Source: Phorcus lineatus | Lineage: Eukaryota; Mollusca; Gastropoda; Trochida; Trochidae | NCBI GenBank assembly: GCA_921293015.1 | Contig: OV121086.1 | Location: 25,220,254-25,284,253 of the forward strand | DNA length: 64,000 nt | Reading direction: 5' to 3' | Shown here: positions 4,786 to 32,600 of the stretch, one piece after another | Numbering within the stretch: the stretch's first letter is position 1 | Layout: the number at the start of each line of letters is the position of its first letter | Translations under genes and position numbers: made by a program | Notes under the pieces: model-generated | Told to the model about the DNA's origin: nothing | The model's input: only the letters and a program-made list of their open reading frames with translations | Databases searched by the model: none

Positions 4786-4809
4786 AATATAATAATAATA
4801 ATAATAATG
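4786..4809 (+). repeat. (AAT)n microsatellite, 3' tail of the LINE
   Basis: An AAT run on the + strand forms the 3' terminus of the - strand LINE. Such 3-bp tails are characteristic of CR1/L2-group elements. Confidence 0.8.
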
Positions 4810-4988
4810 AGTATTTATAAAGCGCTATATCCATACACAAGGTGCATGCTCAAAGCGCATATACATGTTAGAATAAAGGGTAATGATGTGAAGTATTGGC
4901 ATGAATAAAATCAAAGAGAAAAGTATGAGTTATAACATATGAATAAATATAGTACACAAAGTCAGATAATTCCGTCAGTGGGAAAAAT

Positions 4989-10200: not shown

Positions 10201-10877
10201 CAGAGAACACATTGCAAGATGGCGACCAAAACAGTACGACGGTGATAGGTCTCTGATTCCATTCAATGACCATTGCTCGTTTCTCCTAATTGTCGAGGTT
10301 AAAATGGTTAAATTTAACTGAGAATAGTCAGGATATGAATAAGCAATCTATTGGTGCAGGTGTAATGGACCCAAAAAATGATTTAAGTGGCATTGTACAT
10401 GAATCATTGAAGACATAATTAAGGTTGGAACTACGAAGTTGATGTCTAATACGAATTTTTTTTAACTGTAAATTTGGACACACAAACATTAATTCGAATC
10501 TAGTCGTGCAAAGGGAAACTATTTTTATATCCGCGGCGCAACGCTAAACTTTGCCTGTGGCTGGTTCGTTAACACAAAAACACATCAAGGGAGAAACATA
10601 CCCTATTCCAAAAATAAAATAACAAACGAAAACCACTATACCTTTCTGTATTAGAGCATCAGCATCTTTTTATACTAGTTACAATCTACGGTATTCAATG
10701 AGTTTTTAAGATCAACAACCAAGACAGTCAATATAATAAAAAAATGTCGACACTGAAGACATTAGTAACACAATGACCCCGGTCATGTACAGCTTGTATC
10801 ATTCACGATAACTTGAAATGTATACGTGTCATATCAGTTTTTTTAAATCCCTTATTGTAGATTAACCTATTAACTTT

Positions 10878-11910
10878 CAGGGTGCGAAATCGTCATTTAA
10901 ACACTGCACCAGTGCAGGTGAAAATCGTCTTGTGCAGTCTAAATTAGTTACTGGACTGCACCGGGTGCAGTTTGAAAAATAACATATTTTCAAATACCTT
11001 TCGCATATAACTGTTCCAATCATGAATGTTTTTCTTAAATTTCACAAACAGCTTTAATCATTCCAATATTTTATAAAGGGAAACTTCCGAGAATCGTCAG
11101 TGACGATCGCCATGTTGATATTTTATGCTCTTACTATTTACTCCCTCTGTAAATTTCCCATTCTCCGGCATGCTGTTGACAGTTATGAGTTTGTTTAACG
11201 AGGGTGGCAAAAAGAATAGCCCCTCAAATATGCCATGTGCTCTGTCGAAGTGTAAACAAAAAGTTCTATCGGCATTTCAAGGGTATAACAAAATTTTGTT
11301 GACTCTAAAAATACACTATATGTACTATGACTGCTTGGAATAAATGATAAGATCGTAAGTTTTTTAATTTTACTCTGCATTTTACAATTTTGCCATCGCT
11401 ATTGAAAATATCAACATCGTTTGACTTGGTCTATATATTCGTTTCTGGACTGCAACCAGTTTGAAAGATCAGCTTATTTCTTATTTCCAAGATTAGTTTT
11501 AACTTTATTCAATTGAAAACGATAACAAAAAGATTTAAAACGTTTGCAACACCAAAACAGTGATTTACTTCCGCATTTTAACAAAAATAGCTAAATTCAG
11601 ACTCTTCGGATATTTCCGTGAGAACTCGTTTTTAACTTCAGTGAAAACATTGTCGCTTAGCAACCATATCGTCCTGCTGTCACACGTGGCCAAGATGTCA
11701 AAACAAGCTGGTCAATCGAAACTCTTACAGTTTTTTACGAAGACGAATAAAGATAAACAACAAAAGAGATATTGTTGATATTTTAATATGTAAAACTAAG
11801 TCACCCATTGTGATGATCTTTGGTGCAGCCAGAGAGACACAGGTGCAGTCTGGTAAAATCAGTTGACTGCACTTGGTGCAGGGCATGAAAAAAAACGAAT
11901 TCGTACCCTG
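10878..11910 (+). mobile_element. hAT-like non-autonomous DNA transposon (1,033 bp)
   Basis: The termini are CAGGGTGCGAA and TTCGTACCCTG, imperfect inverted repeats, with ACTTT duplicated on both sides (10,873-10,877 and 11,911-11,915). Copy B keeps the empty site with one ACTTT at 19,689-19,693, which proves the boundaries. Sub-terminal CTGCACC/GGTGCAG motifs occur near both ends. CAGGG termini fit the hAT group; a 5-bp duplication is unusual there (8 bp is the norm) but I recall hAT subgroups with 5 bp. An open frame at 11,695-11,778 resembles a transposase N-terminus; the rest of the transposase is absent. Confidence 0.85.
11695..11778 (+). pseudogene. Transposase N-terminal remnant with PIP-box-like motif
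   Basis: The first 27 codons from an ATG, beginning MSKQAG, contain QSKLLQFF, which matches the PCNA-interacting pattern Q-x-x-[LIM]-x-x-F-F. Short basic N-termini ending in a hydrophobic pair of phenylalanines are common in hAT-related transposases. The frame stops after YC, so this is either a relic or a first exon. Confidence 0.45.
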
Positions 11911-12219
11911 ACTTTGAAATTCACTTAAATTTGAACATATTGCGTCATTTAAGCCTATAGAACCGGGCTTGGAACCCATGATTTCGTGAACTGAATTTAC
12001 CGCATGGTCTGACACTCGGAACTCTTATTGATTTTACATACATTTGAAACTTTAAGACAAAGTTTGGAAACAGATATATATATAGCCGTCGGCTTGGACA
12101 TATAAAAATCTATGGTTAGCTGTGCACAAAACGGACAAATTATTGACACTTTGGAACGACTGAGCTAGTATCGTGTGCAGCTATTGAATTTACCTAAACT
12201 CTGAACTGAGAACAAATCA

Positions 12220-12560
12220 TATAATATGTTTTATGAAAGCAATAATAACACAGTATTAGCATTCTTATTAGATTTACCATAGCGGCTGCCGTTTCCGCTT
12301 TTCTGGTTATGAGCAAAATCTTAATATTTCCGATATCGTTGTTCATGCGGATTTATTGTAACGTAACATTAAATACTTTCGGCCTTTTAAAAATCAACTT
12401 TACTACCTGAATACGTAAATATTTGTTAAATAACTTACGAGGTAGATTACTTGAGTGAGGATAGTGAGTAATATCGAGGGATATGCAGTATCTGTGCATT
12501 CGTTGTGTTTACGAAATATTGGCGTGCACTAGTGCGTTTAAAGTAACCTTAGTGCAATGT
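12220..12560 (+). repeat. Diverged direct repeat R, left copy A
   Basis: This matches 32,230-32,600 in the same orientation, roughly 75-80% by eye. Shared blocks include ATATTTGTTAAATAAC, GAGGTAGATTAC and GTGCACTAGTGC. An almost identical copy at about 19,998-20,338 is due to the recent duplication. No coding content was recognised. Confidence 0.65.
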
Positions 12561-12615
12561 TAAAGGATGGGAGTTAGGTTAACCTTAGTAAAGTTGCTTT
12601 GTGAAAGGACTACAG
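12537..12615 (+). repeat. Fragment of the CTTTCACAAA-type MITE
   Basis: It contains AAAGTAACCTTAGTGCAATG and ends TTTGTGAAAGGA. Both match, as reverse complement or in direct sense, the MITE that is split up at 34,198-37,069. The duplicated counterpart lies at 20,315-20,393. Confidence 0.5.
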
Positions 12616-12812
12616 AAGTACAAAAAAAACAACTGTCGCGGTCTCACCTCCTTCAACAATAGAAAAAAGATAACAAGAAAATGTGAAACTAACCATTGAA
12701 AATACAATCAATTTTCAGACATAAAATATATTATCAATGAAGCTATTAGATATTGATAATCATCGTATAAATACATAGCCATTATAAATTGTCAGTGTTA
12801 ATAGAATTTACA

Positions 12813-13046
12813 ATAAATTCAGCCTGTGATCCTGTACAATTTGATAACGAACCCATTGAAATTGTAAGTGAATATAAGTATCTTAGAACTATCATTGACA
12901 ATCGACTAAACTTTTCTGCATCGTATCTACAAAAAGTGTCAACAACGTATGTATTTTTTTAGAGGATTAAGATATTTTAATATTGATAATTCGATTATGA
13001 ATATGTTTTATAATTGCTGCATCCAATCTATTTTATCACGTCATCG
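12813..13046 (+). pseudogene. LINE reverse transcriptase C-terminal fragment (copy A)
   Basis: The + strand frame reads IVSEYKYLRTIIDNRLNFS and, after a frameshift near 12,950, RGLRYFNIDNSIMNMFYN. This is the thumb region found after the reverse transcriptase palm in several LINE clades. It belongs to a different element from the - strand LINE next to it. It is cut off at the microsatellite at 13,049. Confidence 0.7.
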
Positions 13047-13048
13047 TC

Positions 13049-13051
13049 ACC

Positions 13052-13098
<47 letters not shown>

Positions 13099-13100
13099 TA
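13049..13100 (+). repeat. (CATTAT)n/(TAT)n microsatellite, copy A
   Basis: A run of CATTAT units passes into TAT units between two LINE fragments. It may be the 3' tail of the - strand LINE. The second copy is at 20,827-20,878. Confidence 0.9.
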
Positions 13101-15419
13101 CAACCAATTAACCGAACCTGTCATGTTGTGTCAACTTTGGGCTATTTGATTTCAATCAATCTTTATTCAGTACTCAAAAGGCCTCAGCTACATATTTATC
13201 ACATTTATGAAACAATTCGGTTTTTGTATAACGATGCGTAAAATATATACATGGACAGGTTTTCAATTTCTTAATTATTTAAACTATTTAAAAGTTTTGA
13301 GAATTTAGCATAGTTGGATGTACACAGTTTTTTTCTTTGATATATGTTTTAAGAATGTCAGTGTAGATAGAACATACAAGTAAAAAGTGATATTCATTTC
13401 AATTCATTTGACTGGCATTATTGGCAGAATCTATGTTCTCTCCTTATATTTAAATATCTACCTTTCTCAATAAACAGCTCATGCGAAGAACAAACGTGCT
13501 AGGCTGATTCTATTCTTTTTAACATTCAAACAAGATAGGTAGTATTTGGTATGGATATTGCTTTTAAACATGACGTCGGTGTCACATTTGCTTGAAGTAA
13601 ATGTTTTTGCTTGAAGTAAATATTTTTACTTGCCAATTTTCAAAATACGTATCTTTTAGTCTTTGAGTAAATGATTTACGAAATCGGGATAAATTCCAAT
13701 TTTCTGGTTGTACCAAATATTTCCAAAACCAGTTGAGAACAATAATTCTTCACATCTGACACCCTATTCTATGTCCATTTCGATCAAATAAAAGCATGAT
13801 ATTTTAGCATTTCTTTTGCGATATGACGGCATGTGTAATGGCTTTATCCAGTATCGAATTACTTTACAAAAGGAATAAATATATTACCTGCCACATTCTC
13901 CATAAATCATTACACTCGGAGTGTTTAACACACAAAATAAAACCTTTCCAGGCAAACATGTAGATGTACCGTTTCTGGGTTAACAAATGTATTTAATCCG
14001 CATATTTCTGCCCTATATAAAATAATGGGATTTATCTATACATAAAATATTTTGAAAATGAGTTCATATCTAAGACTTGCTAGCAATACTGATTTGCTTG
14101 CACAGCTGCATACTTTGCATGTAATGACCATTATATGTGACTTGTGATACACCAAGATATTTTTAGTATCAAGTTTGCAATTATTATAGAACCATTATTC
14201 ATTTGCTACTTGTCCACAATTTTTAAATACCACTACCTTTGTTTTCTTTAGATTTATTGTTAATTTTAACTGTATAAAATAATTCTCCAGTTCATATATT
14301 TGCTTGTGTAAATCAATAATAATGCTTGATATCAAGACAATATCATAGGCAAAAAGTAAAAGAAATAGTTGGAAAACATCTCGATGTAACTGTATGCCAT
14401 GTGTACAATTATATTCGACCTGGCTGGCTAACTCATTATATATAGAAGGAAAATAAGATGGCACTTAATACACAACTCTGTCTGACACCTATTAGTATCT
14501 CAAACGATTCTGATAAAATATTCTTGTTTCTCAAACATGCTTTTACATTTTCATACATATGTCTTAAAAGGTTACACATTTTTGCGCTAAGACCTCGTAC
14601 GAATGAAGCATAACATTTACCATCTTTAACATTTAGGTATCCCTGGACATTACTTTGTAAGACAAACATATTATCAATGATTGTGTATCCTTGTCTGAAA
14701 CCTGCTTTGCATTCAGTAAGCTGATCCATTGTTTCTCCCCTAAATAATAACCTCTTGTTGATAATTGAAGTGAACATTTGGCAGAAAACACTGAGAAGTG
14801 TTATCCCTCTTTAGTTATTTTCATTGTTTATATCACCATTTTTGTGCAAGAGGATGATTATTCCCATTGACCATTCTTTCGGAAAAATACCTGTTTAAGT
14901 ATCAAGGTGAATAATAAATCTAGATATGGAATCGAAAGATCAGATGAATATCTAAACAATTCAGGTATCAATCCATATTGTGTACTTCTTGAGATTTGTT
15001 TAGTTTCAGGTATACTCTCTGCTATATCCCCTCTAGTTATGGGCGAATCAAGTATCTGTTCTGTTAGTTCAAACTTTACGTCCGAATGTTGATGATTTAC
15101 CTCAGCTTCGCCTTCATTAGGTTCACCTTCTCCTAGGTTTTCACTCGAAAATAAACTTTGGAAGCGATCAAACCAGCATTTTGTTTCAATTTTATTAGCC
15201 TTCATAGACTTTTAGTTTAGACGTTTAAACTCATTTCAAAATCTGTTTGAATCATTTATGCTATTTCAATTATGAATTGTTTGCTTCTATAATATTCTAT
15301 GCGTTTTCGTTTACACAATGCGTTATACACATTTCTTATCTTATTATATTTATCAAGTGAGCTAGAATCTTTGTATTTTCTGAATTTATTTACGATCCAC
15401 AGCGATCAACTTTCATTTG
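13101..15419 (-). pseudogene. LINE reverse transcriptase and C-terminal region, copy A (degenerate)
   Basis: This is the 3' half of a LINE read on the - strand. From 5' to 3' it contains FDTECKQMK and a linker (KRIEYYRSKQ), KCWFDRFQSLFSS (15,205 down), then ECKAGFRQGYTIIDNMF and RQSCVLSAILF. The catalytic box reads FAYDIVLIS where FADD is expected. Further on are NLKKTKVVVF, IRILKIGK, RISLARL and a C-terminus ending MYIFYASLYKNRIVS with a stop at about 13,205. An AATAAAGATTGATT-like tail follows. Several stops and frameshifts break it. The 5' half (endonuclease) lies at 31.1-32.2 kb beyond the tandem array. The clade is not settled. Confidence 0.8.
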
Positions 15420-18400
15420 TTTACATTCCGTATCAAACCAGTCATTTACAACTGTTTTTGATTATCTAATATTTGTCTTCATATCATATGCAGCTAGACT
15501 CAGTGCATCAACAATATATTAACTACTCCTATCAATGTTTACATTCCGTATAAAACTAGTCATTTACAACTGTTTTTTGTTTCCTAATATTTGTCTTCAT
15601 ATCAGACGCAGCTAGATTCAGTTCTCCAACAATATATTAACTACTCCTATCAATGTTTACATTCCGTATAAAACCAGTCATCTACAACTGTTTTTTGTTT
15701 CCTAATATTTGTCTTCATATCAGATGCAGCTAGATTCAGTGCTTCAACAATATATTAACTACTCCTATCAATGTTTACATTCCGTATCAAACCAGTCATT
15801 TACAACTGTTTTTTGTTTCCTAATATTTGTCTTCATATCAGACGCAGCTAGATTCAGTGCTCCAACAATATATTAACTACTCCTATCAATGTTTACATTC
15901 CGTATCAAACCAGTCATTTACAACTGTTTTTGGTTTCCTAATATTTGTCTTCATACCAGACGCAGCTAGATTCAGTGCTCCAACAATATATCAACTACTC
16001 CTATTAATGTTTACATTCCGTATCAAACCAGTCATTTACAACTGTTTTTTGTTTCCTAATATTTGTCTTCATATCAGATGCAGCTAGATTCAGTGCTCCA
16101 ACAATATATTAACTACTCCTATCAATGTTTACATTCCGTATCAAACCAGTCATTTACAACTGTTTTGGATTATCTAATATTTGTCTTCATATCAGACGCA
16201 GCTAGATTCAGTGCTCCAACAATATATTAACTACTCCTATTAATGTTTACATTCCGTATCAAACCAGTCATTTACAACTGTTTTGGATTATCTAATATTT
16301 GTCTTCATATCATATGCAGCTAGACTCAGTGCATCAACAATATATTAACTACTCCTATCAATGTTTACATTCCGTATCAAACCAGTCATTTACAACTGTT
16401 TTGGATTATCTAAAATTTGTCTTCATATCAGACGCAGCTATATTCAGAGCTTCAACAATATATTAACTACTCCTATCAATGTTTACATTCCGTATCAAAC
16501 CAGTCATTTACAACTGTTTTGGATTATCTAAAATTTGTCTTCATATCAGACGCAGCTATATTCAGAGCTTCAACAATATATTAACTACTCCTATCAATGT
16601 TTACATTCCGTATCAAACCAGTCATTTACAACTGTTTTGGATTATCTAATATTTGTCTTCATATCATATGCAGCTAGACTCAGTGCATCAACAATATATT
16701 AACTACTCCTATCAATGTTTACATTCCGTATCAAACCAGTCATTTACAACTGTTTTGGATTATCTAAAATTTGTCTTCATATCAGACGCAGCTATATTCA
16801 GAGCTTCAACAATATATTAACTACTCCTATCAATGTTTACATTCCGTATCAAACCAGTCATTTACAACTGTTTTGGATTATCTAATATTTGTCTTCATAT
16901 CAGACGCAGCTATATTCAGAGCTTCAACAATATATTAACTACTCCTATCAATGTTTACATTCCGTATCAAACCAGTCATTTACAACTGTTTTGGATTATC
17001 TAATATTTGTCTTCATATCATATGCAGCTAGACTCAGTGCATCAACAATATATTAACTACTCCTATCAATGTTAACATTCCGTATCAAACCAATCATTTA
17101 CAACTGTTTTTTGTTTCCTAATATTTGTCTTCATATCAGACGCAGCTATATTCAGTGCTCCAACAATATATTAACTACTCCTATCAATGTTTACATTCCG
17201 TATCAAACCAATCATTTACAACTGTTTTGGATTATCTAATATTTGTCTTCATATCATATGCAGCTAGACTCAGTGCTCCAACAATATATTAACTACTCCT
17301 ATTAATGTTTACATTCCGTATCAAACCAGTCATTTACAACTGTTTTGGATTATCTAATATTTGTCTTCATATCATATGCAGCTAGACTCAGTGCATCAAC
17401 AATATATTAACTACTCCTATCAATGTTAACATTCCGTATCAAACCAATCATTTACAACTGTTTTTTGTTTCCTAATATTTGTCTTCATATCAGACGCAGC
17501 TATATTCAGTGCTCCAACAATATATTAACTACTCCTATCAATGTTTACATTCCGTATCAAACCAATCATTCACAACTGTTTTGGATTATCTAATATTTGT
17601 CTTCATATCATATGCAGCTAGACTCAGTGCATCAACAATATATTAACTACTCCTATCAATGTTTACATTCCGTATCAAACCAGTCATTTACAACTGTTTT
17701 GGATTATCTAATATTTGTCTTCATATCATATGCAGCTAGACTCAGTGCATCAACAATATATTAACTACTCCTATCAATGTTTACATTCCGTATCAAACCA
17801 ATCATTTACAACTGTTTTTTGTTTCCTAATATTTGTCTTCATATCAGATGCAGCTAGATTCAGTGCTTCAACAATATATTAACTACTCCTATCAATGTTT
17901 ACATTCCGTATGAAACAAGTCATTTACAACTGTTTTTGATTATCTAATATTTGTCTTCATATCATATGCAGCTAGACTCAGTGCTCCAACAATATATTAA
18001 CTACTCCTATTAATGTTTACATTCCGTATCAAACCAGTCATTTACAACTGTTTTGGATTATCTAATATTTGTCTTCATATCATATGCAGCTAGACTCAGT
18101 GCATCAACAATATATTAACTACTCCTATCAATGTTAACATTCCGTATCAAACCAGTCATTTACAACTGTTTTTTGTTTCCTAATATTTGTCTTCATATCA
18201 GATGCAGCTAGATTCAGTGCTCCAACAATATATTAACTACTCCTATCAATGTTTACATTCCGTATCAAACCAGTCATTTACAACTGTTTTGGATTATCTA
18301 AAATTTGTCTTCATATCAGACGCAGCTATATTCAGAGCTTCAACAATATATTAACTACTCCTATCAATGTTTACATTCCGTATCAAACCAGTCATTTACA

Positions 18401-19017
18401 ACTGTTTTGGATTATCTAAAATTTGTCTTCATATCAGACGCAGCTATATTCAGAGCTTCAACAATATATTAACTACTCCTATCAATGTTTACATTCCGTA
18501 TCAAACCAGTCATTTACAACTGTTTTGGATTATCTAATATTTGTCTTCATATCATATGCAGCTAGACTCAGTGCATCAACAATATATTAACTACTCCTAT
18601 CAATGTTTACATTCCGTATCAAACCAGTCATTTACAACTGTTTTGGATTATCTAATATTTGTCTTCATATCATATGCAGCTAGACTCAGTGCATCAACAA
18701 TATATTAACTACTCCTATCAATGTTTACATTCCGTATCAAACCAATCATTTACAACTGTTTTTTGTTTCCTAATATTTGTCTTCATATCAGATGCAGCTA
18801 GATTCAGTGCTTCAACAATATATTAACTACTCCTATCAATGTTTACATTCCGTATGAAACAAGTCATTTACAACTGTTTTTGATTATCTAATATTTGTCT
18901 TCATATCATATGCAGCTAGACTCAGTGCATCAACAATATATTAACTACTCCTATCAATGTTTACATTCCGTATCAAACCAATCATTTACAACTGTTTTTT
19001 GTTTCCTAATATTTGTC
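15420..19017 (+). repeat. 118-bp tandem satellite array, copy A (about 30 monomers)
   Basis: About 30 head-to-tail 118-bp monomers; spacing of the TTTACATTCCG block is exactly 118 where checked. Read on the - strand, one monomer translates as part of the LINE linker: YIVEALNLAASDMK, then RKQKTVVNDWFDTECK. The two monomer halves come in variant types (GTTTCC or GGATTATC after the TTTT run; several forms of the CAGCTAGATTCAGTG block). 118 is not a multiple of 3, so the frame shifts at each junction. The array ends mid-monomer at 19,017 where copy B of the duplication begins. Confidence 0.97.
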
Positions 19018-19997
19018 AGAGAACACATTGCAAGATGGCGACCAAAACAGTACGACGGTGATAGGTCTCTGATTCCATTCAATGACCATTGCTCGTTTCT
19101 CCTAATTGTCGAGGTTAAAATGGTTAAATTTAACTGAGAATAGTCAGGATATGAATAAGCAATCTATTGGTGCAGGTGTAATGGACCCAAAAAATGATTT
19201 AAGTGGCATTGTACATGAATCATTGAAGACATAATTAAGGTTGGAACTACGAAGTTGATGTCTAATACGAATTTTTTTTAACTGTAAATTTGGACACACA
19301 AACATTAATTCGAATCTAGTCGTGCAAAGGGAAACTATTTTTATATCCGCGGCGCAACGCTAAACTTTGCCTGTGGCTGGTTCGTTAACACAAAAACACA
19401 TCAAGGGAGAAACATACCCTATTCCAAAAATAAAATAACAAACGAAAACCACTATACCTTTCTGTATTAGAGCATCAGCATCTTTTTATACTAGTTACAA
19501 TCTACGGTATTCAATGAGTTTTTAAGATCAACAACCAAGACAGTCAATATAATAAAAAAATGTCGACACTGAAGACATTAGTAACACAATGACCCCGGTC
19601 ATGTACAGCTTGTATCATTCACGATAACTTGAAATGTATACGTGTCATATCAGTTTTTTTAAATCCCTTATTGTAGATTAACCTATTAACTTTGAAATTC
19701 ACTTAAATTTGAACATATTGCGTCATTTAAGCCTATAGAACCGGGCTTGGAACCCATGATTTCGTGAACTGAATTTACCGCATGGTCTGACACTCGGAAC
19801 TCTTATTGATTTTACATACATTTGAAACTTTAAGACAAAGTTTGGAAACAGATATATATATAGCCGTCGGCTTGGACATATAAAAATCTATGGTTAGCTG
19901 TGCACAAAACGGACAAATTATTGACACTTTGGAACGACTGAGCTAGTATCGTGTGCAGCTATTGAATTTACCTAAACTCTGAACTGAGAACAAATCA

Positions 19998-20338
19998 TAT
20001 AATATGTTTTATGAAAGCAATAATAACACAGTATTAGCATTTTTATTAGATTTACCATAGCGGCTGCCGTTTCCGCTTTTCTGGTTATGAGCAAAATCTT
20101 AATATTTCCGATATCGTTGTTCATGCGGATTTATTGTAACGTAACATTAAATACTTTCGGCCTTTTAAAAATCAACTTTACTACCTGAATACGTAAATAT
20201 TTGTTAAATAACTTACGAGGTAGATTACTTGAGTGAGGATAGTGAGTAATATCGAGGGATATGCAGTATCTGTGCATTCGTTGTGTTTACGAAATATTGG
20301 CGTGCACTAGTGCGTTTAAAGTAACCTTAGTGCAATGT
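19998..20338 (+). repeat. Diverged direct repeat R, left copy B
   Basis: Duplicate of 12,220-12,560 at offset 7,778, nearly identical (one C/T difference was seen near 20,042). Confidence 0.65.
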
Positions 20339-20590
20339 TAAAGGATGGGAGTTAGGTTAACCTTAGTAAAGTTGCTTTGTGAAAGGACTACAGAAGTACA
20401 AAAAAAACAACTGTCGCGGTCTCACCTCCTTCAACAATAGAAAAAAGATAACAAGAAAATGTCAAACTAACCATTGAAAATACAATCAATTTTCAGACAT
20501 AAAATATATTATCAATGAAGCTATTAGATATTGATAATCATCGTATAAATACATAGCCATTATAAATTGTCAGTGTTAATAGAATTTACA

Positions 20591-20824
20591 ATAAATTCAG
20601 CCTGTGATCCTGTACAATTTGATAACGAACCCATTGAAATTGTAAGTGAATATAAGTATCTTAGAACTATCATTGACAATCGACTAAACTTTTCTGCATC
20701 GTATCTACAAAAAGTGTCAACAACGTATGTATTTTTTTAGAGGATTAAGATATTTTAATATTGATAATTCGATTATGAATATGTTTTATAATTGCTGCAT
20801 CCAATCTATTTTATCACGTCATCG
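20591..20824 (+). pseudogene. LINE reverse transcriptase C-terminal fragment (copy B)
   Basis: Exact counterpart of 12,813-13,046 in copy B, with the same frameshift and truncation. The lesions therefore predate the duplication. Confidence 0.7.
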
Positions 20825-20826
20825 TC

Positions 20827-20829
20827 ACC

Positions 20830-20876
<47 letters not shown>

Positions 20877-20878
20877 TA
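20827..20878 (+). repeat. (CATTAT)n/(TAT)n microsatellite, copy B
   Basis: Same length as in copy A. Microsatellites usually change length quickly, so the identity supports a very recent duplication. Confidence 0.9.
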
Positions 20879-23197
20879 CAACCAATTAACCGAACCTGTC
20901 ATGTTGTGTCAACTTTGGGCTATTTGATTTCAATCAATCTTTATTCAGTACTCAAAAGGCCTCAGCTACATATTTATCACATTTATGAAACAATTCGGTT
21001 TTTGTATAACGATGCGTAAAATATATACATGGACAGGTTTTCAATTTCTTAATTATTTAAACTATTTAAAAGTTTTGAGAATTTAGCATAGTTGGATGTA
21101 CACAGTTTTTTTCTTTGATATATGTTTTAAGAATGTCAGTGTAGATAGAACATACAAGTAAAAAGTGATATTCATTTCAATTCATTTGACTGGCATTATT
21201 GGCAGAATCTATGTTCTCTCCTTATATTTAAATATCTACCTTTCTCAATAAACAGCTCATGCGAAGAACAAACGTGCTAGGCTGATTCTATTCTTTTTAA
21301 CATTCAAACAAGATAGGTAGTATTTGGTATGGATATTGCTTTTAAACATGACGTCGGTGTCACATTTGCTTGAAGTAAATGTTTTTGCTTGAAGTAAATA
21401 TTTTTACTTGCCAATTTTCAAAATACGTATCTTTTAGTCTTTGAGTAAATGATTTACGAAATCGGGATAAATTCCAATTTTCTGGTTGTACCAAATATTT
21501 CCAAAACCAGTTGAGAACAATAATTCTTCACATCTGACACCCTATTCTATGTCCATTTCGATCAAATAAAAGCATGATATTTTAGCATTTCTTTTGCGAT
21601 ATGACGGCATGTGTAATGGCTTTATCCAGTATCGAATTACTTTACAAAAGGAATAAATATATTACCTGCCACATTCTCCATAAATCATTACACTCGGAGT
21701 GTTTAACACACAAAATAAAACCTTTCCAGGCAAACATGTAGATGTACCGTTTCTGGGTTAACAAATGTATTTAATCCGCATATTTCTGCCCTATATAAAA
21801 TAATGGGATTTATCTATACATAAAATATTTTGAAAATGAGTTCATATCTAAGACTTGCTAGCAATACTGATTTGCTTGCACAGCTGCATACTTTGCATGT
21901 AATGACCATTATATGTGACTTGTGATACACCAAGATATTTTTAGTATCAAGTTTGCAATTATTATAGAACCATTATTCATTTGCTACTTGTCCACAATTT
22001 TTAAATACCACTACCTTTGTTTTCTTTAGATTTATTGTTAATTTTAACTGTATAAAATAATTCTCCAGTTCATATATTTGCTTGTGTAAATCAATAATAA
22101 TGCTTGATATCAAGACAATATCATAGGCAAAAAGTAAAAGAAATAGTTGGAAAACATCTCGATGTAACTGTATGCCATGTGTACAATTATATTCGACCTG
22201 GCTGGCTAACTCATTATATATAGAAGGAAAATAAGATGGCACTTAATACACAACTCTGTCTGACACCTATTAGTATCTCAAACGATTCTGATAAAATATT
22301 CTTGTTTCTCAAACATGCTTTTACATTTTCATACATATGTCTTAAAAGGTTACACATTTTTGCGCTAAGACCTCGTACGAATGAAGCATAACATTTACCA
22401 TCTTTAACATTTAGGTATCCCTGGACATTACTTTGTAAGACAAACATATTATCAATGATTGTGTATCCTTGTCTGAAACCTGCTTTGCATTCTGTAAGCT
22501 GATCCATTGTTTCTCCCCTAAATAATAACCTCTTGTTGATAATTGAAGTGAACATTTGGCAGAAAACACTGAGAAGTGTTATCCCTCTTTAGTTATTTTC
22601 ATTGTTTATATCACCATTTTTGTGCAAGGGGATGATTATTCCCATTGACCATTCTTTCGGAAAAATACCTGTTTAAGTATCAAGGTGAATAATAAATCTA
22701 GATATGGAATCGAAAGATCAGATGAATATCTAAACAATTCAGGTATCAATCCATATTGTGTACTTCTTGAGATTTGTTTAGTTTCAGGTATACTCTCTGC
22801 TATATCCCCTCTAGTTATGGGCGAATCAAGTATCTGTTCTGTTAGTTCAAACTTTACGTCCGAATGTTGATGATTTACCTCAGCTTCGCCTTCATTAGGT
22901 TCACCTTCTCCTAGGTTTTCACTCGAAAATAAACTTTGGAAGCGATCAAACCAGCATTTTGTTTCAATTTTATTAGCCTTCATAGACTTTTAGTTTAGAC
23001 GTTTAAACTCATTTCAAAATCTGTTTGAATCATTTATGCTATTTCAATTATGAATTGTTTGCTTCTATAATATTCTATGCGTTTTCGTTTACACAATGCG
23101 TTATACACATTTCTTATCTTATTATATTTATCAAGTGAGCTAGAATCTTTGTATTTTCTGAATTTATTTACGATCCACAGCGATCAACTTTCATTTG
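20879..23197 (-). pseudogene. LINE reverse transcriptase and C-terminal region, copy B (degenerate)
   Basis: Counterpart of 13,101-15,419 with the same stops, frameshifts and FAYD box. The translated fragments at 21,973-22,242, 22,214-22,555 and 22,636-22,983 are identical at protein level to those in copy A. In the original layout this half continued 5' through one linker segment into the endonuclease part at 31,098-32,170. Confidence 0.8.
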
Positions 23198-26100
23198 TTT
23201 ACATTCCGTATCAAACCAGTCATTTACAACTGTTTTTGATTATCTAATATTTGTCTTCATATCATATGCAGCTAGACTCAGTGCATCAACAATATATTAA
23301 CTACTCCTATCAATGTTTACATTCCGTATAAAACTAGTCATTTACAACTGTTTTTTGTTTCCTAATATTTGTCTTCATATCAGACGCAGCTAGATTCAGT
23401 GCTCCAACAATATATTAACTACTCCTATCAATGTTTACATTCCGTATAAAACCAGTCATCTACAACTGTTTTTTGTTTCCTAATATTTGTCTTCATATCA
23501 GATGCAGCTAGATTCAGTGCTTCAACAATATATTAACTACTCCTATCAATGTTTACATTCCGTATCAAACCAGTCATTTACAACTGTTTTTTGTTTCCTA
23601 ATATTTGTCTTCATATCAGACGCAGCTAGATTCAGTGCTCCAACAATATATTAACTACTCCTATCAATGTTTACATTCCGTATCAAACCAGTCATTTACA
23701 ACTGTTTTTGGTTTCCTAATATTTGTCTTCATACCAGACGCAGCTAGATTCAGTGCTCCAACAATATATTAACTACTCCTATTAATGTTTACATTCCGTA
23801 TCAAACCAGTCATTTACAACTGTTTTTTGTTTCCTAATATTTGTCTTCATATCAGATGCAGCTAGATTCAGTGCTCCAACAATATATTAACTACTCCTAT
23901 CAATGTTTACATTCCGTATCAAACCAGTCATTTACAACTGTTTTGGATTATCTAATATTTGTCTTCATATCATATGCAGCTAGGCTCAGTGCATCAACAA
24001 TATATTAACTACTCCTATCAATGTTTACATTCCGTATCAAACCAGTCATTTACAACTGTTTTGGATTATCTAAAATTTGTCTTCATATCAGACGCAGCTA
24101 TATTCAGAGCTTCAACAATATATTAACTACTCCTATCAATGTTTACATTCCGTATCAAACCAGTCATTTACAACTGTTTTGGATTATCTAAAATTTGTCT
24201 TCATATCAGACGCAGCTATATTCAGAGCTTCAACAATATATTAACTACTCCTATCAATGTTTACATTCCGTATCAAACCAGTCATTTACAACTGTTTTGG
24301 ATTATCTAATATTTGTCTTCATATCATATGCAGCTAGACTCAGTGCATCAACAATATATTAACTACTCCTATCAATGTTTACATTCCGTATCAAACCAAT
24401 CATTTACAACTGTTTTTTGTTTCCTAATATTTGTCTTCATATCAGATGCAGCTAGATTCAGTGCTTCAACAATATATTAACTACTCCTATCAATGTTTAC
24501 ATTCCGTATGAAACCAGTCATTTACAACTGTTTTTGATTATCTAATATTTGTCTTCATATCATATGCAGCTAGACTCAGTGCATCAACAATATATTAACT
24601 ACTCCTATCAATGTTTACATTCCGTATCAAACCAATCATTTACAACTGTTTTTTGTTTCCTAAAATTTGTCTTCATATCAGACGCAGCTAGATTCAGTGC
24701 TCCAACAATATATTAACTACTCCTATCAATGTTTACATTCCGTATCAAACCAATCATTTACAACTGTTTTGGATTATCTAATATTTGTCTTCATATCATA
24801 TGCAGCTAGACTCAGTGCATCAACAATATATTAACTACTCCTATCAATGTTTACATTCCGTATCAAACCAATCATTTACAACTGTTTTTTGTTTCCTAAA
24901 ATTTGTCTTCATATCATATGCAGCTAGACTCAGTGCTCCAACAATATATTAACTACTCCTATTAATGTTTACATTCCGTATCAAACCAGTCATTTACAAC
25001 TGTTTTTTGTTTCCTAATATTTGTCTTCATATCAGATGCAGCTAGATTCAGTGCTCCAACAATATATTAACTACTCCTATCAATGTTTACATTCCGTATC
25101 AAACCAGTCATTTACAACTGTTTTGGATTATCTAAAATTTGTCTTCATATCAGACGCAGCTATATTCAGAGCTTCAACAATATATTAACTACTCCTATCA
25201 ATGTTTACATTCCGTATCAAACCAGTCATTTACAACTGTTTTGGATTATCTAAAATTTGTCTTCATATCAGACGCAGCTATATTCAGAGCTTCAACAATA
25301 TATTAACTACTCCTATCAATGTTTACATTCCGTATCAAACCAGTCATTTACAACTGTTTTGGATTATCTAATATTTGTCTTCATATCATATGCAGCTAGA
25401 CTCAGTGCATCAACAATATATTAACTACCCCTATCAATGTTAACATTCCGTATCAAACCAATCATTTACAACTGTTTTTGGTTTCCTAATATTTGTCTTC
25501 ATATCAGACGCAGCTATATTCAGTGCTCCAACAATATATTAACTACTCCTATCAATGTTTACATTCCGTATCAAACCAATCATTTACAACTGTTTTGGAT
25601 TATCTAATATTTGTCTTCATATCATATGCAGCTAGACTCAGTGCTCCAACAATATATTAACTACTCCTATTAATGTTTACATTCCGTATCAAACCAGTCA
25701 TTTACAACTGTTTTTTGTTTCCTAATATTTGTCTTCATATCAGATGCAGCTAGATTCAGTGCTCCAACAATATATTAACTACTCCTATCAATGTTTACAT
25801 TCCGTATCAAACCAGTCATTTACAACTGTTTTGGATTATCTAAAATTTGTCTTCATATCAGACGCAGCTATATTCAGAGCTTCAACAATATATTAACTAC
25901 TCCTATCAATGTTTACATTCCGTATCAAACCAGTCATTTACAACTGTTTTGGATTATCTAAAATTTGTCTTCATATCAGACGCAGCTATATTCAGAGCTT
26001 CAACAATATATTAACTACTCCTATCAATGTTTACATTCCGTATCAAACCAGTCATTTACAACTGTTTTGGATTATCTAATATTTGTCTTCATATCAGACG

Positions 26101-29100
26101 CAGCTATATTCAGAGCTTCAACAATATATTAACTACTCCTATCAATGTTTACATTCCGTATCAAACCAGTCATTTACAACTGTTTTGGATTATCTAATAT
26201 TTGTCTTCATATCATATGCAGCTAGACTCAGTGCATCAACAATATATTAACTACTCCTATCAATGTTTACATTCCGTATCAAACCAATCATTTACAACTG
26301 TTTTTTGTTTCCTAATATTTGTCTTCATATCAGATGCAGCTAGATTCAGTGCTTCAACAATATATTAACTACTCCTATCAATGTTTACATTCCGTATGAA
26401 ACAAGTCATTTACAACTGTTTTTGATTATCTAATATTTGTCTTCATATCATATGCAGCTAGACTCAGTGCATCAACAATATATTAACTACTCCTATCAAT
26501 GTTTACATTCCGTATCAAACCAATCATTTACAACTGTTTTTTGTTTCCTAATATTTGTCTTCATACCAGACGCAGCTAGATTCAGTGCTCCAACAATATA
26601 TTAACTACTCCTATCAATGTTTACATTCCGTATCAAACCAATCATTTACAACTGTTTTGGATTATCTAATATTTGTCTTCATATCAGACGCAGCTAGATT
26701 CAGTGCTTCAACAATATATTAACTACTCCTATCAATGTTTACATTCCGTATAAAACTAGTCATTTACAACTGTTTTTTGTTTCCTAATATTTGTCTTCAT
26801 ATCAGACGCAGCTAGACTCAGTGCATCAACAATATATTAACTACTCCTATCAATGTTTACATTCCGTATCAAACCAGTCATTTACAACTGTTTTGGATTA
26901 TCTAATATTTGTCTTCATATCAGACGCAGCTATATTCAGTGCTCCAACAATATATTAACTACTATCAATGTTTACATTCCGTATCAAACCAGTCATTTAC
27001 AACTGTTTTGGATTATCTAATATTTGTCTTCATATCAGACGCAGCTATATTCAGTGCTCCAACAATATATTAACTACTCCTATCAATGTTTACATTCCGT
27101 ATAAAACTAGTCATTTACAACTGTTTTTTGTTTCCTAATATTTGTCTTCATATCAGACGCAGCTATATTCAGTGCTCCAACAATATATTAACTACTCCTA
27201 TCAATGTTTACATTCCGTATCAAACCAGTCATTTACCACTGTTTTTGGTTTCCTAATATTTGTCTTCATATCAGACGCAGCTAGATTCAGTGCTCCAACA
27301 ATATATTAACTACTCCTATCAATGTTTACATTCCGTATCAAACCAGTCATTTACCACTGTTTTTTGTTTCCTAATATTTGTCTTCATATCAGATGCAGCT
27401 AGATTCAGTGCTCCAACAATATATTAACTACTCCTATCAATGTTTACATTCCGTATCAAACCAGTCATTTACAACTGTTTTTTGTTTCCTAATATTTGTC
27501 TTCATATCAGATGCAGCTAGATTCAGTGCTCCAACAATATATTAACTACTCCTATCAATGTTTACATTCCGTATCAAACCAGTCATTTACAACTGTTTTT
27601 TGTTTCCTAATATTTGTCTTCATATCATATGCAGCTAGATTCAGTGCTTCAACAATATATTAACTACTCCTATCAATGTTTACATTCCGTATCAAACCAG
27701 TCATTTACAACTGTTTTTTGTTTCCTAATATTTGTCTTCATATCAGACGCAGCTAGATTCAGTGCTCCAACAATATATTAACTACTCCTATCAATGTTTA
27801 CATTCCGTATCAAACCAGTCATTTACCACTGTTTTTTGTTTCCTAATATTTGTCTTCATATCAGACGCAGCTAGATTCAGTGCTCCAACAATATATTAAC
27901 TACTCCTATCAATGTTTACATTCCGTATCAAACCAGTCATTTACCACTGTTTTTTGTTTCCTAATATTTGTCTTCATATCAGATGCAGCTAGATTCAGTG
28001 CTCCAACAATATATTAACTACTCCTATCAATGTTTACATTCCGTATCAAACCAGTCATTTACAACTGTTTTTGGTTTCCTAATATTTGTCTTCATACCAG
28101 ACGCAGCTAGATTCAGTGCTTCAACAATATATTAACTACTCCTATCAATGTTTACATTCCGTATCAAACCAGTCATTTACAACTGTTTTTTGTTTCCTAA
28201 TATTTGTCTTCATATCAGACGCAGCTAGATTCAGTGCTCCAACAATATATTAACTACTCCTATCAATGTTTACATTCCGTATCAAACCAGTCATTTACCA
28301 CTGTTTTTTGTTTCCTAATATTTGTCTTCATATCAGATGCAGCTAGATTCAGTGCTCCAACAATATATTAACTACTCCTATCAATGTTTACATTCCGTAT
28401 CAAACCAATCATTTACAACTGTTTTTTGTTTCCTAATATTTGTCTTCATATCAGATGCAGCTATATTCAGTGCTCCAACAATATATTAACTACTCCTATC
28501 AATGTTTACATTCCGTATCAAACCAGTCATTTACAACTGTTTTTTGTTTCCTAATATTTGTCTTCATACCAGACGCAGCTAGATTCAGTGCTTCAACAAT
28601 ATATTAACTACTCCTATCAATGTTTACATTCCGTATCAAACCAGTCATTTACAACTGTTTTTTGTTTCCTAATATTTGTCTTCATATCAGACGCAGCTAG
28701 ATTCAGTGCTCCAACAATATATTAACTACTCCTATCAATGTTTACATTCCGTATCAAACCAGTCATTTACAACTGTTTTTTGTTTCCTAATATTTGTCTT
28801 CATATCAGATGCAGCTATATTCAGTGCTCCAACAATATATTAACTACTCCTATCAATGTTTACATTCCGTATCAAACCAGTCATTTACAACTGTTTTTGG
28901 TTTCCTAATATTTGTCTTCATACCAGACGCAGCTAGATTCAGTGCTTCAACAATATATTAACTACTCCTATCAATGTTTACATTCCGTATCAAACCAGTC
29001 ATTTACAACTGTTTTTTGTTTCCTAATATTTGTCTTCATATCAGATGCAGCTATATTCAGTGCTCCAACAATATATTAACTACTCCTATCAATGTTTACA

Positions 29101-31097
29101 TTCCGTATCAAACCAGTCATTTACAACTGTTTTTGGTTTCCTAATATTTGTCTTCATACCAGACGCAGCTAGATTCAGTGCTTCAACAATATATTAACTA
29201 CTCCTATCAATGTTTACATTCCGTATCAAACCAGTCATTTACAACTGTTTTTGGTTTCCTAATATTTGTCTTCATACCAGACGCAGCTAGATTCAGTGCT
29301 TCAACAATATATTAACTACTCCTATCAATGTTTACATTCCGTATCAAACCAGTCATTTACAACTGTTTTTTGTTTCCTAATATTTGTCTTCATATCAGAC
29401 GCAGCTAGATTCAGTGCTCCAACAATATATTAACTACTCCTATCAATGTTTACATTCCGTATCAAACCAGTCATTTACCACTGTTTTTTGTTTCCTAATA
29501 TTTGTCTTCATATCAGATGCAGCTAGATTCAGTGCTCCAACAATATATTAACTACTCCTATCAATGTTTACATTCCGTATCAAACCAATCATTTACAACT
29601 GTTTTTTGTTTCCTAATATTTGTCTTCATATCAGATGCAGCTATATTCAGTGCTCCAACAATATATTAACTACTCCTATCAATGTTTACATTCCGTATCA
29701 AACCAGTCATTTACAACTGTTTTTGGTTTCCTAATATTTGTCTTCATACCAGACGCAGCTAGATTCAGTGCTTCAACAATATATTAACTACTCCTATCAA
29801 TGTTTACATTCCGTATCAAACCAGTCATTTACAACTGTTTTTGGTTTCCTAATATTTGTCTTCATACCAGACGCAGCTAGATTCAGTGCTTCAACAATAT
29901 ATTAACTACTCCTATCAATGTTTACATTCCGTATCAAACCAGTCATTTACAACTGTTTTTTGTTTCCTAATATTTGTCTTCATATCAGATGCAGCTATAT
30001 TCAGTGCTCCAACAATATATTAACTACTCCTATCAATGTTTACATTCCGTATCAAACCAGTCATTTACAACTGTTTTTGGTTTCCTAATATTTGTCTTCA
30101 TACCAGACGCAGCTAGATTCAGTGCTTCAACAATATATTAACTACTCCTATCAATGTTTACATTCCGTATCAAACCAGTCATTTACAACTGTTTTTTGTT
30201 TCCTAATATTTGTCTTCATATCAGATGCAGCTAGATTCAGTGCTTCAACAATATATTAACTACTCCTATCAATGTTTACATTCCGTATCAAACCAGTCAT
30301 TTACCACTGTTTTTTGTTTCCTAATATTTGTCTTCATATCAGACGCAGCTAGATTCAGTGCTCCAACAATATATTAACTACTCCTATCAATGTTTACATT
30401 CCGTATCAAACCAGTCATTTACCACTGTTTTTTGTTTCCTAATATTTGTCTTCATATCAGATGCAGCTAGATTCAGTGCTCCAACAATATATTAACTACT
30501 CCTATCAATGTTTACATTCCGTATCAAACCAGTCATTTACAACTGTTTTTGGTTTCCTAATATTTGTCTTCATATCAGACGCAGCTAGATTCAGTGCTTC
30601 AACAATATATTAACTACTCCTATCAATGTTTACATTCCGTATAAAACTAGTCATTTACAACTGTTTTTTGTTTCCTAATATTTGTCTTCATATCAGACGC
30701 AGCTAGATTCAGTGCTCCAACAATATATTAACTACTCCTATCAATGTTTACATTCCGTATCAAACCAGTCATTTACAACTGTTTTGGATTATCTAATATT
30801 TGTCTTCATATCAGACGCAGCTATATTCGGTGCTCCAACAATATATTAACTACTCCTATCAATGTTTACATTCCGTATCAAACCAGTCATTTACCACTGT
30901 TTTTTGTTTCCTAATATTTGTCTTCATATCAGATGCAGCTAGATTCAGTGCTTCAACAATATATTAACTACTCCTATCAATGTTTACATTCCGTATCAAA
31001 CCAGTCATTTACAACTGTTTTTTGTTTCCTAATATTTGTCTTCATATCAGACGCAGCTAGATTCAGTGCTTCAACTATATATTAACTACTATCAATG
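23198..31097 (+). repeat. 118-bp tandem satellite array, copy B (about 67 monomers)
   Basis: The monomer is the same as at 15,420-19,017. The left part (to about 26,900) mixes GGATTATC and GTTTCC types in recurring multi-monomer blocks. The right part (about 26,900-31,080) is dominated by GTTTCC monomers, many with TTACCACTG in place of TTACAACTG. One monomer near 26,950 lacks TCC in CTACTCCTATC. The array passes directly into LINE coding sequence on both sides: TGTAAA then CAAATG on the reverse transcriptase side, and GCATTTACGTG then CATTGATAG on the endonuclease side (- strand sense). Confidence 0.97.
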
Positions 31098-32170
31098 CAC
31101 GTAAATGCGTTGTCTACTTGTGGTTCATAGACAACATTAGATAAAAGATTTTGTCTAAACTGTTCCAATTTGTCCATATCCCAGATAAACTTAAACCCAG
31201 TCTTGCTCTCAATATCACACACATCTGCTTGTTGTGTATGAAGCGCTTGTAGTTTCAACGTGACCGGAAGATGGGATGACTCGGCTCTGGTTGGTATGTC
31301 GAAGTCATCAACAAAGTCGAATAATAATAATAATAATAATGAGTATTTATAAAGCGCTATATTCATACACAAGGTGCATGATGATATTATATAACCAATC
31401 ACGCTCGCACAATTTGAACCGATATATGTTAAATTTCCAGTTTCTGAGTCACAGCCACATCGTCCCTTCATAATATGGATATTTAGTAAAGAACATAAAT
31501 CTAGTAAGTATTTACCGAAGTTGTTTACTATCTTGTCAACGGAGAATCGGTTAAAATCGTTAAAACAATCAAAAATAGTTTCAATAAATGCGTAATTTTT
31601 ACCTGTGAATTCTAATTTTACATTTTCAATAAAATCTGACCTCGTCCCAGTTCTTGCATTAAAATCACCCCCGCACAACATGTAAACATCTGGTAATCCA
31701 GGTAATATATCTAATAAGGTATCTCGGAAAATAGTGATTCCATTTTTACATTCTAGATGAGATTGACTATACCAAGTAGATGCTTCTGGGTGAATATGAG
31801 AACTCTCTAAATTTATTTCTAATCCAAACTGTAATTCCACCAGAGAGCCACCCAGAATTTGATATTTTATCTGCATGTTTGGTAATTGCATGATAAATAA
31901 TCTGGAAAATATTTCTTGATGTTTCGGTATAAAATATTTTAACATGTTCTATAAAATCTTTTTCAAGTAATTTCTGTTTCAAACCAGATACATTCCAAAA
32001 TATGAAATTTGTAAACTTGTTTAAGTATGTATGGTAATCGTTCTTTAATTCTGTATGATTTATGAATGGTTTGATGCTTCGAGATAGCGATGAACCTTAA
32101 GATAAGGCCTTCTTTGCAGTTCTCTGTCGACAAACTTACAAGGATCTAACTGTCCACACTCAAACGTACA
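31098..32170 (-). pseudogene. LINE endonuclease half (5' part of the array-split LINE)
   Basis: The - strand frame carries an APE-type endonuclease. Upstream is KQKLLEKDFIEHVKIF, then SGGITVWIRNKFREF, then YMLCGGDFNARTGTRSDFI (catalytic GDFN block). These are followed by VNNFGKYLLDLCSLLNIHIM, RAESSHLPVTLKL and FKFIWDMDKLEQFRQNLL, after which it runs into the 118-bp unit. Frameshifts separate the N-terminal block (31,767-31,982) from the main open stretch (31,082-31,945). A pre-endonuclease region with CGQLDPCKFVDRELQRRP extends to about 32,170. The stretch is interrupted by a LINE tail stub at 31,321-31,380. Confidence 0.8.
31321..31380 (-). mobile_element. 3'-terminal stub of the CR1/L2-like LINE
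   Basis: About 60 bp matching the 3' end of the LINE at 4,786-8,520, including (AAT)n and AGCGCTATATTCATACACAA on the + strand (one mismatch against 4.8 kb). It sits inside the endonuclease frame of the other LINE without breaking it. Typical extreme 5'-truncated insertion. Confidence 0.8.
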
Positions 32171-32229: not shown

Positions 32230-32600
32230 ATCTGAAACAATGTTTATCAAAGCAATCTCATTACTCAACCGATTAAAATAGTGTAGTATAAGCATGGCTA
32301 TTACATAAGATAGCGACTGCCGTTTTCGCTCTTCTGGCTGTAAACAAAATTTGAATATTTCTGACATCGAAGTTAATATGTAACGTTGCATCAAACACTT
32401 CCGGTTTTTAAAACCTTTTCAACTTTATAAACTTAATCCGCACATATTTGTTAAATAACATAAGAGGTAGATTACCTGAGTGTGGATCTTTAATATTATC
32501 GAGAGATATATGCATCATCTGGCCATTCGTTGTACTATGCACGAAATATTGGTGTGCACTAGTGCTTTTAAATAATCTTTAAAAACAACTCCATCTCTCT
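32230..32600 (+). repeat. Diverged direct repeat R, right copy
   Basis: Same orientation as 12,220-12,560. Shared blocks include ATATTTGTTAAATAAC, GAGGTAGATTAC and GTGCACTAGTGC, with many substitutions and small gaps. It lies just outside the 5' end of the array-split LINE, so copies of R bracket the whole LINE/satellite complex. Confidence 0.65.

What the first reader, a model, noticed from the sequence alone, without database searches (positions are those of the whole stretch)
15420..31097. A 118-bp satellite that is a piece of the LINE it sits in
Seen: each monomer, read on the - strand, encodes YIVEALNLAASDMK...RKQKTVVNDWFDTECK. The array runs directly into LINE coding sequence at both edges: endonuclease (HLPVTLKL, DKLEQFRQNL) on the right, and ECKQMK then reverse transcriptase on the left. 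One monomer therefore equals the natural linker between the two domains. Inference: a single LINE copy suffered an internal tandem duplication (junction TGTAAA/CATTGATAG, with CA as 2-bp microhomology), which then grew to about 67 copies. This catches a satellite at its birthplace, with the parent element still flanking it.
Basis: partly seen in the sequence, partly recalled or inferred. Interest (0 to 1): 0.85.

Follow-up and report, generated by a model that had tools for sequence, protein, structure and literature searches.

The report
Tandem array inside a dead LINE
A short stretch in the middle of what looks like a dead LINE retrotransposon appears to have multiplied in place into a long tandem array, and the locus turns up twice in the sequence, so it is a clear example of a known way that satellite-like DNA begins.

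Summary
The core observation holds. A 118-bp tandem array lies inside a decayed, LINE-like minus-strand element, with endonuclease-side sequence at its right edge and reverse-transcriptase-side sequence at its left. The unit reads in the element's frame at both edges and carries an in-frame stop in all 97 units examined. The 2-bp CA at the junction is there too.

A1 (15418-19017, 30.5 units) and A2 (23196-31090, about 67) are separated by a second copy of the left flank. Flank copies differ at 4 of 3507 bases, and a 677-bp block is identical. Copy 1 carries a 1033-bp transposon-like insertion that copy 2 lacks. A1 stops mid-unit at a 1-bp junction. This is either a recent direct duplication or two haplotypes assembled in series; I cannot tell which.

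The arrays match best at their shared ends but differ inside, more than the flanks do. In-situ growth from one LINE linker is the best explanation (about 0.85). No intact copy of this LINE was found, and arrays elsewhere in the genome could not be tested. TE-derived satellites, including ORF2-like ones, are known. Interest is moderate to low.

The parts
31094..32009 (-). endonuclease-side remnant of the LINE (decayed); holds a 60-bp piece at 31321-31380 that also occurs at 4789-4848
   Evidence: Open frame 31082-31945. Motifs GGDFNARTG, IGSNCASVIGYI and SSHLPV in order, recalled as APE-endonuclease-like; no Pfam hit. NFIFWNVSGL at 32009. 60-bp match at 98%.
23196..31090 (-). array A2, about 67 units of 118 bp, in the EN-RT linker position
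   Evidence: Tandem Repeats Finder; units and types
20930..23195 (-). reverse-transcriptase-side remnant of the LINE, copy 2 (3' limit placed by eye)
   Evidence: In-frame continuation ECKQMK; RVT_1 weak and collinear (E 0.02 and 0.057); motifs at 22935, 22642, 22128, 21726
15418..19017 (-). array A1, 30.5 units, cut mid-unit at its right end
13152..15417 (-). reverse-transcriptase-side remnant of the LINE, copy 1 (3' limit by offset from copy 2)
   Evidence: 11911-15417 matches 19689-23195 with 4 of 3507 differences
10201..19017 (.). copy 1 of the duplicated block
   Evidence: Self-BLAST; 677 of 677 and 3503 of 3507 flank bases identical to copy 2
19017..26559 (.). copy 2 of the duplicated block; right limit computed from the A2 unit that best matches the cut end of A1
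   Evidence: tail of A1 fits A2 units 21-28 best
10878..11910 (.). 1033-bp transposon-like insertion in copy 1 only, inverted ends beginning CAGGGT, flanked by ACTTT direct repeats; empty site at 19689-19693

Best explanation
A single decayed LINE copy suffered a short internal tandem duplication covering the linker between its endonuclease and reverse transcriptase (unit 115-118 bp, 2-bp CA at the junction). The repeat then grew in place by unequal exchange, conversion and block duplication to at least about 67 units. The left flank and the left part of the array appear a second time in direct order, either through a real duplication of about 7.5 kb or because two haplotypes were assembled one after the other. 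Shown: the array, its frame continuity at both edges, a stop at the same codon in the 97 units examined, mosaic units, the second copy, and the insertion in one copy only. Inferred: the founding event, its mechanism, and that the unit was once single copy in the parent LINE.
For: The unit reads in the element's frame at both edges, with EN-side sequence right of the array and RT-side sequence left of it. One unit gives linker spacing close to that of another LINE in the window: 92 vs 85 codons, and 192 vs 191 by coordinates (motifs paired by eye). The CA junction is present. A stop at the same codon is in 97 of 97 units, edge units included (95 by pattern, 2 by eye), so the LINE was probably already disabled when it amplified. 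Units: 45 distinct of 97. Among the 95 units of 118 bp, 27 of 118 sites vary, 9 at each codon position, and 65 of 190 informative site pairs show all four combinations, a sign of exchange between units. Mean pairwise differences in A2 by thirds from the RT side to the EN side are 7.55, 6.3 and 3.5, which suggests recent local growth on the EN side.
Against: No intact copy of this LINE was seen. The endonuclease part gives no Pfam family at E 0.1 nor, in two pieces, at E 10, and no PDB match. The RT hits are below Pfam's cut-off. The linker peptide does not match the other LINE better than shuffles do (533 of 2000; BLASTP E 3.8). BLASTP of EN and RT pieces to that LINE is not significant (best E 2.5 and 1.1). 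Two bases of microhomology are common by chance (my own estimate, about 0.16 for two or more).
Confidence: 0.85

Rival explanations
1. An older satellite inserted into, or was captured by, the LINE, so the LINE is host rather than parent.
For: No other copy of the LINE is available to show a native single unit, and the unit does not match another LINE's linker above shuffles. LINEs do associate with satellites in other ways, for example by preferred insertion into CUS-TR24 in Cuscuta (PMC8091179, passages seen).
Against: The unit continues the element's frame at both edges, and without any unit the linker would be about 39 codons shorter and lack its W position relative to the other LINE (inference). 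A target-site duplication round the array was not tested for.
Confidence: 0.08
2. On the second copy (compatible with the best explanation): it is an assembly artefact, two haplotypes joined end to end, so in the animal there is one array per chromosome, of different length on each.
For: The copies differ as alleles do: 4 of 3507 substitutions, one insertion present in one copy only, array units changed. False duplications of this kind are known in assemblies (PMC9516828 and PMC10548655, search listing with start of abstract only).
Against: The junction at 19017 is abrupt, mid-unit, with one shared base; a join made from overlaps would be expected to show a longer overlap (inference). The window has no N runs.
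Confidence: 0.45
3. On the second copy (compatible with the best explanation): it is a real direct duplication of about 7.5 kb with breakpoints at 10201 and inside the array; a transposon then inserted into copy 1 and the arrays diverged by unit exchange.
For: Abrupt 1-bp junction and clean empty site in copy 2; the cut end of A1 fits A2 units 21-28 best (7 differences, next best place 18).
Against: No read evidence; the amount of difference equally fits alleles.
Confidence: 0.5

Closest known systems
Ogre-retrotransposon-derived satellites of Lathyrus sativus (PMC7004042; abstract and discussion read)
   Same: Short tandem arrays inside a retrotransposon occasionally expand in length, and various stages of expansion were seen.
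   Different: There it is an LTR retrotransposon and the repeats lie in the 3' UTR; here it is a LINE-like element and the unit is derived from coding sequence. Expansion at many genomic sites was shown there, not here.
Satellites linked to LINE ORF2: PROsat (Phodopus), Pvc 20 (Phoca vitulina), HinfI/SCR1 (chicken CR1), as tabulated in the review PMC9659126 (abstract and sections 4, 8 and 14 read)
   Same: Part of a LINE open reading frame is found in the tandem unit.
   Different: As the review describes them, they rest on similarity between a satellite and a LINE; here both halves of the likely parent flank the array. I did not read the primary papers.
LINE-rich CUS-TR24 satellite of Cuscuta europaea (PMC8091179, passages seen)
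   Same: LINE and satellite intermingled.
   Different: There LINEs insert into a pre-existing satellite by target preference; here the array splits one element between its domains and reads in its frame.

Membership tests
TE-derived satellite or satellite-like array | head-to-tail tandem units | tested here: met
   30.5 and about 67 units, 118 bp.
TE-derived satellite or satellite-like array | unit derived from a part of a transposable element | tested here: inconclusive
   In frame at both edges and spacing fits, but no independent copy of the LINE and no significant similarity to another LINE's linker.
TE-derived satellite or satellite-like array | high copy number at many loci, or arrays free of the parent element | not testable with these tools
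   No genome held; within the window the unit's core is found only in A1 and A2.
non-LTR retrotransposon (LINE), APE-endonuclease type | reverse transcriptase domain | tested here: inconclusive
   RVT_1 E 0.02 and 0.057, below cut-off, matching collinear profile parts 5-133 and 155-193; shorter pieces E 0.11 and 0.018; weak PDB matches to R2 proteins (best E 0.012) and L1 ORF2p (E 0.97).
non-LTR retrotransposon (LINE), APE-endonuclease type | APE-like endonuclease upstream of the RT | tested here: inconclusive
   No Pfam family at E 0.1 or, in two pieces, at E 10; no PDB match at E 1. Motifs GGDFNARTG, IGSNCASVIGYI and SSHLPV in order are recalled as endonuclease-like.
non-LTR retrotransposon (LINE), APE-endonuclease type | 3' tail and target-site duplication | not tested
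   Ends of this LINE were not delimited.

The most novel reading that the evidence does not exclude
The two copies of the locus, differing at only 4 of 3507 flank bases, give a direct view of array turnover right at a satellite's birthplace: unit-level reshuffling and change of unit number far outpace point mutation while the parent element is still in place.
Probability: 0.35. Interest if true: 0.5.

Novelty: new member of a known kind. Interest (0 to 1): 0.32.

Why it matters
Many claims that a satellite came from a transposable element rest on similarity after the fact. Here both halves of the likely parent still flank the array, and a second near-identical copy of the locus, whether paralogue or allele, lets one compare how fast the array and its flanks change. 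It is a useful worked case rather than a new principle.

Tried and rejected
Searching for relatives led nowhere. Two linker-motif patterns and one RT-motif pattern in viral contigs gave 0, 1 and 0 hits. The single hit lies near the end of an open frame that shows no LINE feature that I could see by eye. The linker motif in genome contigs gave 5 hits; in 5 of 5 the frame has stops on both sides of the motif within the 120 to 142 residues printed, so I take them as chance. An RT piece in viral contigs gave 5 pattern matches and no confirmed relative. A C-terminal piece against plasmids gave none. These collections hold few or no eukaryotes, so this says little.

A unit-level alignment of A1 to A2 with affine gaps collapsed to a trivial solution, and a base-level one scattered. 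With linear gap costs the result depends on the cost: at cost 7, 28 units pair, 13 identical, 60 differences, 4 units unmatched; at cost 3 a path with 20 pairs, 9 identical, 22 differences and 11 unmatched ties with one that ends at A2 unit 28, and at costs 4 and 5 it wins. I therefore rely on the head and tail anchors. Head: 7 units fit the start of A2 with 9 differences, next best 28. Tail: 8 units (the last a half unit) fit A2 from unit 21 with 7, next best 18. The order of units in A2 matters: score 77 at cost 5 against a minimum of 109 in 200 shuffles.

The linker similarity test against the LINE at 4989-7757 failed (one search stopped with an error after printing the spacings). BLASTP of EN and RT pieces to that LINE was not significant. 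NCBIfam gave only weak, unrelated hits (E 0.14 and 0.041).

I considered coding function for the array and rejected it: a stop in every unit examined, a unit length not divisible by 3, and variable sites even over codon positions.

Papers opened but not relied on: passages of PMC6947457 and PMC10294476. Searches on WaluSat (1 paper) and on false duplications (10 of 149 listed) were seen as listings only.

Full report
What is there. Tandem Repeats Finder reports two 118-bp arrays, 15418-19017 (30.5 copies, 94% matches) and 23196-31090 (66.9 copies, 95% matches). A 20-base core of the unit matches 98 times in the window with up to 3 mismatches against 0.01 expected, 31 in the first array and 67 in the second.

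Link to the LINE. On the minus strand the EN-side frame runs into the right-edge unit without a shift (...VDNAFTCIDSS*YIVEALNLAASDMKTNIRKQKTVVNDWFDTECK), and the left-edge unit runs on as ...DWFDTECKQMK towards the RT side. The junction between units is TGTAAACA/TTGATAG; the left flank has TGTAAACAAATG and the right flank GTGCATTGATAG, so CA is shared. With one unit counted, SSH to W is 92 codons against SDH to W 85 in the LINE at 4989-7757. From the coordinates, W to the RT motif is 576 nt (192 codons' worth, across frame changes) against 191 codons there, the motifs being paired by eye. The similarity of the unit to that LINE's linker is not above shuffles (533 of 2000), so the frame and the spacing carry the argument, not a sequence match.

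How sure is the LINE label. The RT pieces hit RVT_1 weakly (E 0.02 and 0.057, below the cut-off) but in collinear order; shorter pieces give 0.11 and 0.018. Six PDB sequences match the first RT piece at E up to 1, best an R2 retrotransposon protein (E 0.012), last L1 ORF2p (0.97). The endonuclease part hits nothing in Pfam or PDB; its label rests on motifs that I recall as endonuclease-like. BLASTP to the other LINE in the window is not significant. The element is badly decayed, with stops and frame changes.

The array is not coding. The unit length is not a multiple of 3. Of 97 units (30 full ones of A1, 67 of A2), 95 have the stop by exact pattern and the other two, read by eye, have TAA and TGA there. 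In the 95 units of 118 bp, 27 of 118 sites vary, 9 at each codon position, and 65 of 190 pairs of informative sites show all four combinations, as exchange between units would give. There are 45 distinct units among 97. Because the edge units share the stop, the LINE was probably already disabled before the array grew. The right-edge unit and one A2 unit lack 3 bp, so the founding unit may have been 115 bp. The EN-side third of A2 is the most uniform.

The second copy. Self-BLAST shows 10201-10877 repeated at 19017-19693 and 11911-19017 at 19689-26795. The first block is identical over 677 bases, and the flank differs at 4 of 3507. Copy 1 has 1033 extra bases (10878-11910) with near-matching inverted ends beginning CAGGGT and ACTTT on each side; copy 2 has a single ACTTT, an empty site. 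I would call it hAT-like from recall; no call names it. A1 stops inside a unit and joins the 10201 sequence with one shared base. In register, the arrays differ at 170 of 3600 bases, but the first six units differ at only 2 bases and then the register breaks. The head and tail of A1 each fit one place in A2 best, so I take the arrays as copies of one another with a changed interior. Paired units differ more than the flanks under either alignment (60 differences in 28 pairs, or 22 in 20 pairs). Which units were gained or lost is not settled, since the alignment depends on the gap cost. Whether this is a real duplication or two haplotypes in series cannot be decided without reads.

What it works like and what it is. 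The best account is in-situ growth of an internal piece of one dead LINE. A capture of an older satellite is unlikely because of the frame at both edges and because the linker would be short without a unit; it is not excluded, since no intact copy was seen. Known parallels: retrotransposon-internal arrays that expand in Lathyrus (PMC7004042, abstract and discussion read), and satellites linked to LINE ORF2 tabulated in the review PMC9659126 (abstract and three sections read). The reverse relation, LINEs inserting into a satellite, is described in Cuscuta (PMC8091179, passages seen). Among the papers listed in my searches on this (20 of 153; 20 of 74; 2 of 2; 9 of 9; 15 of 21; 2 of 2; 3 of 3) I saw no title about an array grown between the endonuclease and RT of a LINE still in place. 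Only open-licence papers are held and I judged by title and start of abstract, so this is a weak negative.

Verdict. It is a new member of a known kind. Confidence in in-situ origin is 0.85.

Noticed in passing
10878-11910, empty site 19689-19693: A 1033-bp insertion with inverted ends beginning CAGGGT and 5-bp ACTTT repeats, present in one copy of the block only.
   Followed up: partly
12252-12550, 20030-20328 and 32285-32579: A direct repeat of about 300 bp, 75% identical, lies on both sides of the array-bearing LINE in the same orientation. It may be an older dispersed repeat or part of a larger element.
   Followed up: partly
4989-7757 (-): An open LINE reading frame of 922 aa with RVT_1 (E 4.3e-32) and endonuclease (Exo_endo_phos_2, E 1e-11) domains.
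   Followed up: partly
31321-31380 and 4789-4848: A 60-bp piece at 98% identity, lying downstream of the LINE frame at 4989-7757, also lies inside the endonuclease remnant of the array LINE, as a very short truncated insertion would.
   Followed up: no
40703-47240: Several other tandem arrays lie close together: 62-bp, 39-bp, 47-bp, 25/50/75-bp and 30-bp units. This stretch seems prone to tandem growth.
   Followed up: no
2103-2688 and 34219-34707: An inverted pair of dispersed repeats, 86-93% identical.
   Followed up: no
20580-20820 (+): Plus-strand sequence reads by eye like the C-terminal part of another LINE RT (sequence; label recalled), next to an ATT microsatellite.
   Followed up: no
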